A stretch of 33,861 bases of DNA, taken from Chromatiaceae bacterium (GTDB taxonomy: Bacteria > Pseudomonadota > Gammaproteobacteria > SZUA-140). The position numbers were made by a program, and so were the translations under genes. Each line of letters begins with the position of its first letter. Within the stretch, counting starts at the first letter, position 1. The notes under the pieces were generated by a model that ran no database searches, was not told the DNA's origin, and saw only the letters and a list, made by a program, of their open reading frames with translations. Below, in pieces: positions 2,867 to 17,835 of this stretch. Location: assembly GCA_003232725.1 (NCBI GenBank), contig QIJH01000252.1:1-33861 (forward strand), written 5' to 3'.

Positions 2867-4570
2867 TTACACCAAAATCATTTCATTAAGGCCCGCACCG
2901 GCAGGAATCATCGGGTAAACATTCTCTTCACTGTCGGTGACAAAATCCATAAATACCAGGCGATCTTTGAGCTTCATTGCCTCTTCCATTGCGCCGTCAA
3001 CATCCGCTGGATTATCGATGCGCATGCCTACATGTCCATAACTTTCAGCCAGTTTAACAAAATCAGGCAGCGCGTCCATATAAGACATGGCATAACGACC
3101 ATCGTAGAAAAACTCCTGCCACTGACGCACCATGCCAAGATAACGGTTATTCAATGCGATAATTTTAATCGGCAAGCCATATTGCAAACAGGTTGAAAGC
3201 TCCTGAATACACATTTGGATACTGCCTTCACCGGTCACACAGGCGACCGTCGCATCTGGATGAGCAAACTGCACCCCCATCGCCGCGGGCAAGCCAAAAC
3301 CCATCGTGCCAAGGCCACCCGAGTTGATCCAGCGATAAGGCTTGTCAAACTTGTAATACTGCGCCGCCCACATCTGGTGCTGGCCCACATCAGAGGTTAC
3401 GTAAGCATCACCATTAGTCTCTCTATAGAGCGCTTCAACCACCTGTTGCGGCTTCACTTTGTCACTTTCAGTATCATACTTAAGACAGTCTGCAGCGCGC
3501 CATGCGGTGATCTGCTGCCACCATTCGCCAATGGCCTGCTCATCAGGCTTTTTGCCGCCCTTTTTAAGCATCGCGATCATCTCTTGCAACACATTGGTCA
3601 CTGAACCAACAATCGGCACGTCAACTTTGACGTTTTTTGAAATCGAAGAGGGATCAATATCAACATGAATGATCCTGGCATGCGGACAGAACTTCTCAAT
3701 ATTGCCGGTCACGCGGTCATCAAAGCGCGCGCCAATCGCAATTAGCACATCGCAATGATGCATTGTCATATTGGCTTCGTAGGTACCGTGCATGCCAAGC
3801 ATACCGAGAAATTGTTTATCGGTCGCCGGATAGGCACCCAACCCCATCAGGGTATTGGTTATCGGGTAGTTCAGTTGCTGTACCAGTTCAGTCAACTCTG
3901 CTGCACCACGCCCCAATACCACGCCACCACCGGTATAGAAGATAGGGCGTTTAGCCGAAAGCATCATCGCCACCGCGCGTTTGATCTCACCAGCATCACC
4001 CATTTCAACAGGGCTATACGAGCGCATTTTAATCGTCTTAGGGTAGTTGAACTCAGCCTTGTTAGCGGTGACATCTTTTGGAAGGTCAATCACAACCGGC
4101 CCAGGACGCCCCGTCGTCGCAATATAAAATGCTTTTTTGATCGTCTCAGCCAGATCAGCAACTTCCTTCACCAGAAAGTTATGTTTCACACAGGGGCGAG
4201 TGATGCCGATTGAATCAACTTCCTGAAACGCATCATTACCGATCATATTGGTGAAAACCTGGCCGGTAATCACCACCATCGGAATCGAATCCATATAGGC
4301 GGTCGCGATCCCGGTCACCGCATTGGTCGCACCGGGGCCAGAGGTCACCAGTGCAACACCCGCTTTACCGGTCGAGCGTGCGTAGCCATCAGCCGCATGG
4401 GTCGCTGCCTGCTCATGCCTCACCAGTACATGTTTAATGTCCTCTTGTTGATACAGCGCATCGTAGATGTGCAGTACCGCTCCGCCTGGATATCCAAACA
4501 GATGTTTCACTCCCTCTTCTTTCAGGGAACGGACAAGTATCTCCGCGCCGGTTAATTCCACAGCAAGCAC
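2867..4570 (-). CDS. ilvB: Acetolactate synthase large subunit
   Basis: 567 aa; ThDP-dependent enzyme, [30 protein letters not shown]-like ThDP region; GTG start at 4570 preceded by AGAGGG. Confidence 0.97.
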
Positions 4571-4582
4571 CCTCTTTAAAAC

Positions 4583-4743
4583 GAGAACTTTGCACGATTG
4601 TTCTTTTCTCTTCTGGCGGCGTTAACAGCGGACTCAAGCGGTCATTTATCGTTATAAACGCCCTCATCCCGTGCGCTTTTGCCTCGCCTAAAGCGCCTGC
4701 TGTTGGTGCCAGAGAAAAAAATCGCTGTTCATGCAAAGGTCTC
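4583..4743. repeat. Short inverted-repeat element (MITE-like), family 1 copy A
   Basis: Ends GAGAACTTTGCACGA / (rc) GAGACCTTTGCATGA; similar in ends and interior to 15904-16040. About 161 bp. Confidence 0.75.
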
Positions 4744-4957
4744 TTAACAAGTAAAACACCCGCAGAACGGGTGATTAGAATAATCCAATAATGCATTAAT
4801 ATACGGGATCGAATTTTAATGAGATTCGGCGCAAAAAGATAGGGAAGAAAGAAAAAACTTGAGAAAATACAAGCCATTTCCGCGGTTTAATACGGTTTTA
4901 CAGCGGAAATCACAGCAATATCCCAATCAAAAAAAGAGGGGTATTGACGTGCCATTG

Positions 4958-5111
4958 CTAAAATACTCAGAGAGTAGTCAAAATTAACAGTGGCTGCTCA
5001 GATCGCCCATGAAATCTGCCAGTTCAAGGCTAAAAATGTGGGTTTACACGTGTAAATGATCATTTTTTAACGCTGAACGGGTGGATTTCATGGGTTAGCT
5101 GAGTAGTTACA
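4958..5111. repeat. IS66-like MITE, family 2 copy C (degenerate left end)
   Basis: Right end GCTGAGTAGTTAC; core GAAATCTGCCAGTTCAAGGCTAAAAATGTGGGTTTACACGTGTAAATGATCATTTTTTAACGC matches the copy at 16094-16245; same overall length when aligned. Confidence 0.78.
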
Positions 5112-5177: not shown

Positions 5178-5897
5178 TTATTCAGTAAAATGACGCTTTA
5201 AAAATCGCTGAATGGCCAACCACGCCTCTTCGCTTGCCGCTGCATTATAGGATGAACTCATTGGGTTAACAAAACCACTATCAGCGTCCAGCGTCACCAC
5301 ATCCAGGTTTATGCGAAGCCTCAGCATTACCTGCTGAAACTCGTCTAACTGCTCAATGCCAAACGCAGGATCAAGTCGCCCGAACACACCTAGGATCGGC
5401 GCATTAAGACGCTCAAGCGCCTGCTGATTCCCCTTTGGCATCGCATAAAAGGCGACCAATGCGTCGATATCGGTATCATCACTCGATGCGATTTGATAAA
5501 GATAGCTAGCACCATACCCCCAGCCAATCGCGGCGACTAAATCCTGCTGCCTTTTCAGGTAATCAATCGCACCATGAAGGTTAGCGGTCACCCACTCCGG
5601 GTCTGTTTGTGCCACCACCATTTTTGCCATGGAGTCTCGCAGCACTGGGCGGCCATCAAAAAGGTCAGCCACCACCACCCGAAAACCCTGTTTCGCATAG
5701 CGATCTGCCCAGCTCTTAACTTCATCAGCCAATCCCCAACGATCATGCGCAATGACAATGCCAACCTCGGCATCCGCAGGCCCAGTCACATAGGCATCAA
5801 ACGATGTTCCATATGCGGTCTTTAACGTGACCATCTCGGCATTAGCCGCGCCCGTCCAAAGACAGCACATCACCATTAGCAAACCGTTGCGCAACAT
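5178..5897 (-). CDS. Dienelactone hydrolase-family protein with N-terminal signal peptide; nucleophile apparently lost
   Basis: 239 aa; signal peptide MLRNGLLMVMCCLWTGAANA; DLH-like GIVIAHDRWGLADEVKSWADRYAKQGFRVVVADLFDGRP; AIGWGYGASY at the usual GxCxGG elbow. Confidence 0.82.
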   Translation of the reverse strand: MLRNGLLMVMCCLWTGAANAEMVTLKTAYGTSFDAYVTGPADAEVGIVIAHDRWGLADEVKSWADRYAKQGFRVVVADLFDGRPVLRDSMAKMVVAQTDPEWVTANLHGAIDYLKRQQDLVAAIGWGYGASYLYQIASSDDTDIDALVAFYAMPKGNQQALERLNAPILGVFGRLDPAFGIEQLDEFQQVMLRLRINLDVVTLDADSGFVNPMSSSYNAAASEEAWLAIQRFLKRHFTE

Positions 5898-15903: not shown

Positions 15904-16040
15904 AAGACCTTTGCACGACTCTATTTTCCGCTCCCGCTGCGTTAAAACAACCTCAAAATGGTCATTTACTCGCTGTAAATGCCATTCTTCGGCTATTGAT
16001 GCCTTGCTGCAACGGCAATCAGTTCTCATACAAAGGTCTC
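15904..16040. repeat. Short inverted-repeat element (MITE-like), family 1 copy B
   Basis: AAGACCTTTGCACGA ... TCATACAAAGGTCTC; interior blocks (gcgttaa, ggtcattta, tgcc.t) match copy A; begins about 4 bp after the flavoprotein stop codon. Confidence 0.78.
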
Positions 16041-16093
16041 GCTAAATTAAAGCGGTTTGTAGGGAGAGTTCAATTACCTTATTAAGATAATAC

Positions 16094-16245
16094 GTAACTA
16101 TTCAGCATAGTGGAAGATGGGTATGTCACTATTCAGGTTGCTTCTGAAATCTGTCAGTTTAAGGCGAAAAATATGAGTTTACAGGTGTAAATGATCATTT
16201 TTCAACGCAGAAATGGCAGATTTCAGGAGTGAGCTGAATAGTTAC
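16094..16245. mobile_element. IS66-like MITE, family 2 copy D
   Basis: 13-bp perfect terminal repeats GTAACTATTCAGC/GCTGAATAGTTAC, flanked by the 8-bp direct repeat GATAATAC (16086-16093 and 16246-16253). GTAA termini plus 8-bp duplication are IS66-family hallmarks. No transposase. Confidence 0.88.
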
Positions 16246-16661
16246 GATAATACCAACATCATCTTTCGGTGAACTATCCCCGCATCCATGAATGGCTCGC
16301 TCACCACCTCAAAACCAAATGATGCATAAAAGACAATCGCACTCACCTGCGCATCCAGCACTACCTGAGGAAGCTGGGCCGATTTAGCTACTTGAATCAT
16401 TTTCGATAGCAGTAACTTCCCGCCGCCAGCACCTCGATGCTCACGCAATACAGCCATGCGCCCAATCTTGCCGTTAACCGTCATTCGTGCTGTACCGATC
16501 GCCTCATTACCACTGAACAGCAACAGTTGGGTGCACTGCACATCCAGCCCGTCCCACTCCAGCTCAACAGGTACATTTTGCTCCTGAATAAAAACAGCTT
16601 CACGAATGGGACAAATGAACGCCTGCTTATCTGTCCAATCAACTTGCTCTACCCTAATCAT
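16242..16661 (-). CDS. GNAT-family N-acetyltransferase (ElaA/YjcF-like)
   Basis: MIRVEQVDWTDKQAFICPIREAVFIQEQNVPVELEWDGLD...GTARMTVNGKIGRMAVLREHRGAGGGKLLLSKMIQ; start at 16661 overlaps the end of the upstream cupin gene. Confidence 0.92.
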   Translation of the reverse strand: MIRVEQVDWTDKQAFICPIREAVFIQEQNVPVELEWDGLDVQCTQLLLFSGNEAIGTARMTVNGKIGRMAVLREHRGAGGGKLLLSKMIQVAKSAQLPQVVLDAQVSAIVFYASFGFEVVSEPFMDAGIVHRKMMLVLS

Positions 16662-17835
16662 TATCGAAATATAGATGTCCTTCGTTATACAGACGACAGA
16701 GTAATGCAGCATTATCAGGGCTGTCCAATAATACAGCCCACTCAGTCGCAATATGCATTCGTTGATCACATAGCAGATAGACAGCCCTTTTCATCTCGCT
16801 GCTGAGCGTTGTCAAAGTCCCAGCAACAAACAACAGCGTAGCGCTGCGCTGTTCAATGCAGGCAAATCGACTCAATTCACAGCGAAATAATGCCTCTCCT
16901 TGCCGAAAGCGCTTAACAAAAGCATCAATGCTCAGTGCCTTTGCATTTGGCTCGACCCGCTCATCACTTTTTGATTCCGTTACCACCTGACCAAACCAAC
17001 GTGCAAGATCATCATCGTTGACAGGAATACTATTAATGATATCGCGTACTCGCTGTAGCGATACAGCACTAATCTCACCAGGATGCTGCTGAAAGGAGAG
17101 ACCAGGATCTCGATAGTGTTTGACAGAGAGGCGCTGCTCTTCAGCGAGATAGTCAATAAAACTGGTAATCAAATCACACTCAGCAGGGGCACGAAAACCA
17201 ATAGAATAGGTCAGGCCATCGCCCAGTGCGACGCCATGATGAATCACACCCGGCGGCAAGTAGAGCATATCGCCCTCTTCCAGCTCCCAACATTGCTCTG
17301 CCTCAAAATGAGAGAGAATTTGAAGATCGATGCCGGCAATCAGATCACCATGGCAGACCTCTGCTGTCGATATTTGCCAACGTTTTCGCCCCAATCCTTG
17401 CAATAAAAAGACATCATATTGATCAACATGCGGCCCTACCGAACCATCAAGCGGTGAATAACTCACCATAACATCATCGATGCGCCAATTAGGAATAAAA
17501 CGAAATGACTCCAACAACTGTGCCAATTCTGGTACATATTTATGCACCTCTTGAATCAACAACGTCCAGTGACTTTCTGGCAACTCAGGAAAAATCGCCT
17601 CATCGAAAGGGCCATGACTCAGCTGCCATTTCGTATCGCCATCTCGCTCAAGAATAAGACGCGACTCAACCCCCTCTTCACAAGCCATGCCTGCAATCTC
17701 ATCGGGCAACAGTGGCGTTTTAAAACCAGGAAATGCCGCCTTAATCAGCAACGGTTTTTTTTGCCAGTATTGCGCTAAAAATGTCTCGGCACTCATCCCA
17801 TGTGGAAGCGGCAACGGAAATGGTTTCACAAACAC
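16654..17835 (-). CDS. roxA: Cupin (JmjC-like) protein, 50S ribosomal protein L16 arginine hydroxylase type
   Basis: 393 aa; QYWQKKPLLIKAAFPGF, VGPHVDQYDVFLLQGLGRKRWQIS, GDMLYLPPGVIHHGVA: YcfD-like. Confidence 0.9.
   Translation of the reverse strand: MFVKPFPLPLPHGMSAETFLAQYWQKKPLLIKAAFPGFKTPLLPDEIAGMACEEGVESRLILERDGDTKWQLSHGPFDEAIFPELPESHWTLLIQEVHKYVPELAQLLESFRFIPNWRIDDVMVSYSPLDGSVGPHVDQYDVFLLQGLGRKRWQISTAEVCHGDLIAGIDLQILSHFEAEQCWELEEGDMLYLPPGVIHHGVALGDGLTYSIGFRAPAECDLITSFIDYLAEEQRLSVKHYRDPGLSFQQHPGEISAVSLQRVRDIINSIPVNDDDLARWFGQVVTESKSDERVEPNAKALSIDAFVKRFRQGEALFRCELSRFACIEQRSATLLFVAGTLTTLSSEMKRAVYLLCDQRMHIATEWAVLLDSPDNAALLCRLYNEGHLYFDND

What the first reader, a model, noticed from the sequence alone, without database searches (positions are those of the whole stretch)
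16086..16253. IS66-like MITE with perfect 8-bp target duplication that supplies a gene's stop codon without changing its protein
Seen: GTAACTATTCAGC...GCTGAATAGTTAC (16094-16245, 152 bp) flanked by GATAATAC on both sides. The acetyltransferase on the minus strand ends ...GTA TTA TC|G TAA, where G TAA is the element terminus. Excising the element and one duplication gives ...GTA TTA TCT TAA, which also encodes V-L-S-stop. The insertion therefore landed on the last sense codon and rebuilt both codon and stop. Established: GTAA termini and 8-bp duplications are typical of IS66-family transposition. Inference: a non-autonomous element mobilised in trans by an IS66 transposase elsewhere, with a stop-bearing terminus that softens insertions near gene ends. 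The perfect duplication suggests the insertion is not ancient.
Basis: partly seen in the sequence, partly recalled or inferred. Interest (0 to 1): 0.66.

Follow-up and report, generated by a model that had tools for sequence, protein, structure and literature searches.

The report
High-copy IS66-type MITE at gene's stop
A 152-base piece of jumping DNA with no genes of its own, present in at least 50 intact copies in this genome and related to elements in many other gamma-proteobacteria, has landed on the last codon of an acetyltransferase gene and supplies its stop signal without changing the protein; several other copies do the same more often than chance predicts.

Summary
Confirmed and extended. 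Window 16094-16245 is a 152-bp non-autonomous element with 13-bp inverted ends (GTAACTATTCAGC) and a perfect 8-bp duplication, GATAATAC. The genome holds about 148 such ends (3 in control) and 51 paired copies, 46 with perfect duplications. Two same-genus genomes show the site without it, with their TAA at the matching place. The partner is an ISBst12-group IS66 element: 1.7-kb ISs in other genomes share the 13-bp ends, the 8-bp duplication and a target signature (A/T at the two bases either side of the duplication). This genome shows only a truncated copy. New findings: (1) one end is doubled, a second end copy lying 31 bp inside the first in 102 of 124 copies, with a variable spacer; the ISs lack it. 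(2) Insertions into the last 20 codons of reading frames fall in the xxG|TAA frame in 16 of 22 cases (p about 6e-5 against a target-weighted null), and five keep the protein exactly. Insertions at stop codons are also about 1.5-2 times expectation, significant in this genome only. So the 'stop-bearing terminus' idea has modest statistical support, probably by selection after insertion. Homologues occur in 25 of 369 class genomes. No earlier description was found.

The parts
16086..16093 (.). left 8-bp target-site duplication GATAATAC
16094..16245 (+). 152-bp MITE, 'ATTC' subfamily
16094..16106 (+). outer left terminal inverted repeat GTAACTATTCAGC
16107..16124 (+). 18-bp spacer; sequence varies between lineages, length nearly fixed
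16125..16137 (+). inner left TIR-like copy GTCACTATTCAGG, 31 bp inside the outer end; start of the 121-bp core
16125..16159 (+). left arm of the 35-bp imperfect inverted repeat
16211..16245 (-). right arm of the 35-bp imperfect inverted repeat
16233..16245 (-). right terminal inverted repeat GTAACTATTCAGC
16246..16253 (.). right 8-bp target-site duplication GATAATAC
16242..16664 (-). GNAT acetyltransferase gene whose stop codon TAA (16242-16244) and last codon base (16245) come from the element
4959..5110 (+). second, decayed copy of the same MITE ('ACTC' subfamily; left end TAAAATACTCAGA, inner TIR at 4990, no duplication seen)

Best explanation
The feature is a copy of a high-copy, non-autonomous IS66-type element (MITE), moved in trans by a transposase of the ISBst12 group of the IS66 family. 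Shown: it has the 13-bp ends, the 8-bp duplication and the target signature of that group; it is multi-copy; and the site is unoccupied in G004 and G008. Shown statistically: the family carries a doubled left end (two direct copies of the terminal repeat, nearly always 31 bp apart and in one genome also 21 bp), and insertions near the ends of reading frames are biased towards the frame in which the element's G|TAA closes the gene. Inferred: the transposase binds both left sites, and helical phasing makes the MITE a better substrate than the IS itself; selection after insertion removes copies that would add a tail of foreign residues, leaving those whose GTAA acts as a stop. In this window the insertion replaced TCT TAA by TCG TAA, so the acetyltransferase is unchanged (V-L-S-stop).
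For: Copy number and control. 51 paired copies in this genome, 46 with perfect duplications; 95 in five genomes; 47 more in G229. Empty sites in G004 and G008 with a TAA at the matching place. Autonomous ISs of about 1.7 kb with identical ends and 8-bp duplications, encoding a PF03050 transposase (E about 1e-45) with DUF6444. Truncated IS of the same type with the same end in this genome. Shared target signature: A/T 92%/85% at -2/-1 in MITEs (background 54%), 89%/93% in 27 elements from the IS search (24 IS-length, 3 shorter; background 58%), 94%/87% in G229 (background 43%). Doubled left end. Frame bias 16/22. The published ISDge4 (ISBst12 group) has ends GTGACTACTCAGCA/GTAACTGCTCAGCA and an 8-bp repeat on transposition (PMC12898284).
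Against: No intact transposase of this type was found in this genome (a 92% complete draft) or in the genus relatives searched, so the in-trans source is not seen here. The frame test rests on 22 reading frames called by length alone, some counted from both sides of one insertion. Stop-codon clustering is weak outside this genome (p 0.13 in the others). Nothing shows that the inner end binds transposase.
Confidence: 0.9

Rival explanations
1. The repeats are host-maintained functional elements (transcription terminators or structured RNA elements like REP/BIME), kept at gene ends for a regulatory job, and only look like MITEs.
For: Very stable folds on both strands (z -7.9 and -8.2). Position near gene 3' ends above expectation.
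Against: 8-bp duplications at nearly all paired copies and a target signature shared with full-length ISs are products of transposition. No terminator-like site was called within the element. The fold follows from the inverted repeats. Orthologous sites in G004 and G008 lack it.
Confidence: 0.05
2. The clustering at stop codons and the frame bias come only from target choice (A/T-rich sequence around TAA) plus removal of insertions inside genes, not from any benefit of the G|TAA terminus.
For: The element clearly prefers A/T at the bases flanking its target. The stop-codon excess shrinks to 17 observed against 11.9 expected within the same gap.
Against: With the target profile trained on one genome set and applied to the other, the expected share of the xxG|TAA frame is 0.35 (five genomes) and 0.25 (G229); observed 10/12 and 6/10.
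Confidence: 0.3
3. The doubled left end is plain descent from one ancestral element without function, the spacer being free to drift.
For: All copies could share one ancestor. Spacer identity falls to 35% where the core keeps 86%, as expected for unconstrained sequence. A few 121-bp forms without the outer end also have duplications.
Against: The spacer keeps its length (31 bp in 102 of 124) while the core tolerates length changes from 139 to 250 bp in total, and the other common spacing (21 bp) is one helical turn shorter.
Confidence: 0.4

Closest known systems
ISDge4, ISBst12 group of the IS66 family (Deinococcus geothermalis, PMC12898284)
   Same: Ends differing from the MITE's by a base or two (GTGACTACTCAGCA / GTAACTGCTCAGCA); 8-bp direct repeat on observed transposition; single transposase gene.
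   Different: Autonomous. The MITE has no gene and adds a doubled left end, which was not found in the autonomous ISs examined here.
ISBst12-group ISs found here (e.g. L279, L204, L232)
   Same: Identical 13-bp ends, 8-bp duplication, A/T-flanked target signature.
   Different: 1.7 kb with a 470-aa PF03050 transposase; no inner terminal copy.
MITECca01 of Cardinium (IS982-derived, PMC9769881)
   Same: High-copy short element (240 bp, 169 copies) living off a parental IS.
   Different: Different IS family; parental IS intact in the same genome; no doubled end reported in the passages read.
QMITE2 of Coxiella burnetii (PMC5896051)
   Same: About 190-bp gammaproteobacterial MITE with 7-9 bp repeats; one copy at the 3' end of enhC alters the C-terminus.
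   Different: There the insertion extends the protein by 33 residues; here the terminus closes the frame at once.

Membership tests
MITE (miniature inverted-repeat transposable element) | short, terminal inverted repeats, no transposase gene | tested here: met
   152 bp, 13-bp perfect TIRs; too short to encode a transposase and no ORF of 80 aa lies within it
MITE (miniature inverted-repeat transposable element) | multiple dispersed copies with target-site duplications | tested here: met
   51 paired copies in the genome, 46 with perfect 8-bp duplications
MITE (miniature inverted-repeat transposable element) | mobilised in trans by a parental IS | not testable with these tools
   ends, duplication length and target signature match ISBst12-group ISs, but no assay; only a truncated partner in this genome
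IS66 family (ISBst12 group), as derivative | 8-bp duplication | tested here: met
IS66 family (ISBst12 group), as derivative | termini GTAA..., matching group members | tested here: met
IS66 family (ISBst12 group), as derivative | encodes a PF03050 transposase | tested here: not met
   the element has no gene, so it is filed as a derivative of the family, not as an IS66 IS; the partner ISs meet this
REP/BIME-type repeat | no target-site duplication, RAYT-linked hairpin | tested here: not met
   8-bp duplications present

The most novel reading that the evidence does not exclude
The family has evolved two traits that make it a successful passenger: a left end with two phased transposase sites that outcompetes the IS for its own transposase, and termini whose G|TAA closes any gene entered in one of three frames, so that insertions at gene ends are tolerated and accumulate.
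Probability: 0.25. Interest if true: 0.7.

Novelty: new variant of a known kind. Interest (0 to 1): 0.5.

Why it matters
Bacterial MITEs are under-described, and the prokaryotic MITE review consulted (PMC10969869) does not mention IS66 at all. Here one family is traced across many gammaproteobacterial families, tied to its transposase group by three independent features, and given a target signature. The doubled end with near-fixed spacing gives a direct, testable handle on how IS66-type transposases, described as insufficiently characterised (PMC12898284), assemble on their ends and why a MITE may outnumber its IS. The frame bias at gene ends is a quantitative example of terminus sequence shaping which insertions survive.

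Tried and rejected
PF03050 hits in this genome (C132, C49, C232) were checked as partners. The C132 transposase is another IS66 type with a PF13817 C-terminal element, and no flanking pair of these ends was found around it; the C49 fragment only lies beside a MITE copy. IS66 loci in G003, G004, G006, G008 and G019 showed no matching end pairs. Phage and plasmid collections gave no match, nor did a viral-contig scan for the doubled end. Very short forms (31-102 bp with duplications) were considered as minimal mobile elements but look like separate internal deletions after insertion, since the few seen in this genome have different lengths. A first fold call failed on length and one script failed; both were repeated. 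No inner end copy was found in nine autonomous ISs beyond shuffle expectation.

Full report
OBSERVATION. The acetyltransferase gene on the minus strand (GNAT domains) ends in TCG TAA, of which GTAA is the element's end; the joined flanks give TCT TAA, the same amino acid and a stop.

COPIES. The whole-genome search finds 62 aligned matches to the element and about 148 copies of its 13-bp end with up to one mismatch, against 3 for the reversed control. Pairing ends on fetched stretches gives 51 elements in this genome, 46 with perfect 8-bp duplications and 5 with one mismatch. There are two subfamilies, with ends GTAACTATTCAGC and GTAACTACTCAGC. Many contigs stop inside a copy, and several of the broken ends can be re-paired by their duplications, so the family is one cause of the assembly's fragmentation.

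EMPTY SITE. In two same-genus genomes, G004 and G008, the orthologous gene sits in the same convergent pair with an FAD-protein gene and lacks the element; its stop codon TAA aligns with the TAA that the excised sequence would use. The last codons differ somewhat (MMLVLS against MRLLLAI and MRLLLTT), so the relatives confirm absence of the element and position of the stop, not the exact ancestral codon.

PARTNER. A truncated reading frame in this genome (C127) begins inside an element with the same end; its first part matches DUF6444. Its relatives in public genomes include complete ISs of about 1.7 kb, from Bathymodiolus symbionts, Desulfatitalea and others, with the identical 13-bp end and perfect 8-bp duplications. 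Their 470-aa proteins match PF03050 at E about 1e-45. The published ISDge4, assigned to the ISBst12 group, has nearly the same ends and made an 8-bp repeat when it moved (PMC12898284). No complete transposase of this type was seen in this draft or in the relatives searched.

TARGET SIGNATURE. On 95 sites in five genomes, the two bases outside each side of the duplication are A/T in 92% and 85%, against 54% nearby, with a dip at the next two positions. The same holds for 27 elements from the IS search (24 of IS length, 3 shorter; 89%, 93%) and for 47 MITE copies in G229 (94%, 87% against 43%). End sequence, duplication length and target choice thus all tie the MITE to this transposase group.

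DOUBLED LEFT END. The alignment shows a 121-bp core that starts with its own terminal-repeat copy, preceded by an outer terminal repeat. The outer-to-inner offset is 31 bp in 102 of 124 copies, 30 in 9, 21 in 6 (all in G028) and other values in 7. Where the cores of two copies agree at 86%, their spacers agree at 35%, near chance. Total length otherwise varies up to 250 bp through changes in the core. A 121-bp form with its own perfect duplication exists (L094), so the inner end can serve as terminus. Nine autonomous ISs show no inner copy. A function in transposase binding is inference.

GENE ENDS. Against a null that allows insertions between genes or within 60 bases of a stop and weights sites by the target profile, 17 of 83 copies fall at a stop codon where 9.8 are expected (p 0.005), or 11.9 within the same gap (p 0.03). 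The excess is significant in this genome and not in the others alone. Among insertions in the last 20 codons of reading frames of 120 codons or more, 10 of 12 in five genomes and 6 of 10 in G229 lie in the frame xxG|TAA. The target-weighted expectation is 0.35 and 0.25; combined p about 6e-5, or 1.4e-4 after dropping one double count. Five keep the protein exactly: L001 (this window), L010, L376, L447 and L469. Two autonomous IS insertions near gene ends were in other frames, too few to judge. Reading frames were called by length only, so the effect needs confirmation with curated genes.

DISTRIBUTION. 25 of 369 class genomes have a match, from this genome's own family and many others; one, G229, has 358 exact ends in 2.4 Mb. 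Phage and plasmid collections have none. A literature search for the end sequences gave three papers on human, fish and silkworm subjects, unrelated by title, and none of the searches for IS66 with MITEs turned up this family; ISfinder itself could not be consulted.

VERDICT. The kind is known (a MITE of an IS66-family group); the doubled, phased end and the survivor bias at gene ends are the parts that merit a specialist's attention.

Noticed in passing
window 15904-16044: A second, unrelated short element with ends AGACCTTTGCACGA / TCATACAAAGGTCTC lies just downstream of the same gene; its end GAGACCTTTGCACGA occurs 151 times in the genome (up to 1 mismatch, control 0), so a second high-copy MITE family is present.
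   Followed up: partly
window 4959-5110: A second copy of the IS66-type MITE, with a decayed left end and no duplication, between genes 4434-4877 and 5178-5897.
   Followed up: partly
L037, L038, L156: Forms of 31, 38 and 50 bp consisting of little more than the two ends, still flanked by 8-bp duplications: probably internal deletions after insertion.
   Followed up: partly
L472 6924-7099: In G229 one copy has the terminal repeat three times in tandem at 12-bp period (GTAACTATTCAG x3).
   Followed up: no
L213, L216, L217, L221, L223: In the Bathymodiolus japonicus methanotrophic symbiont, elements with the same ends and duplications are 2.0-2.7 kb, longer than the 1.7-kb IS; what they carry was not examined.
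   Followed up: no
L212 1856-2031: The same symbiont has a different 176-bp MITE with the same 13-bp ends.
   Followed up: no
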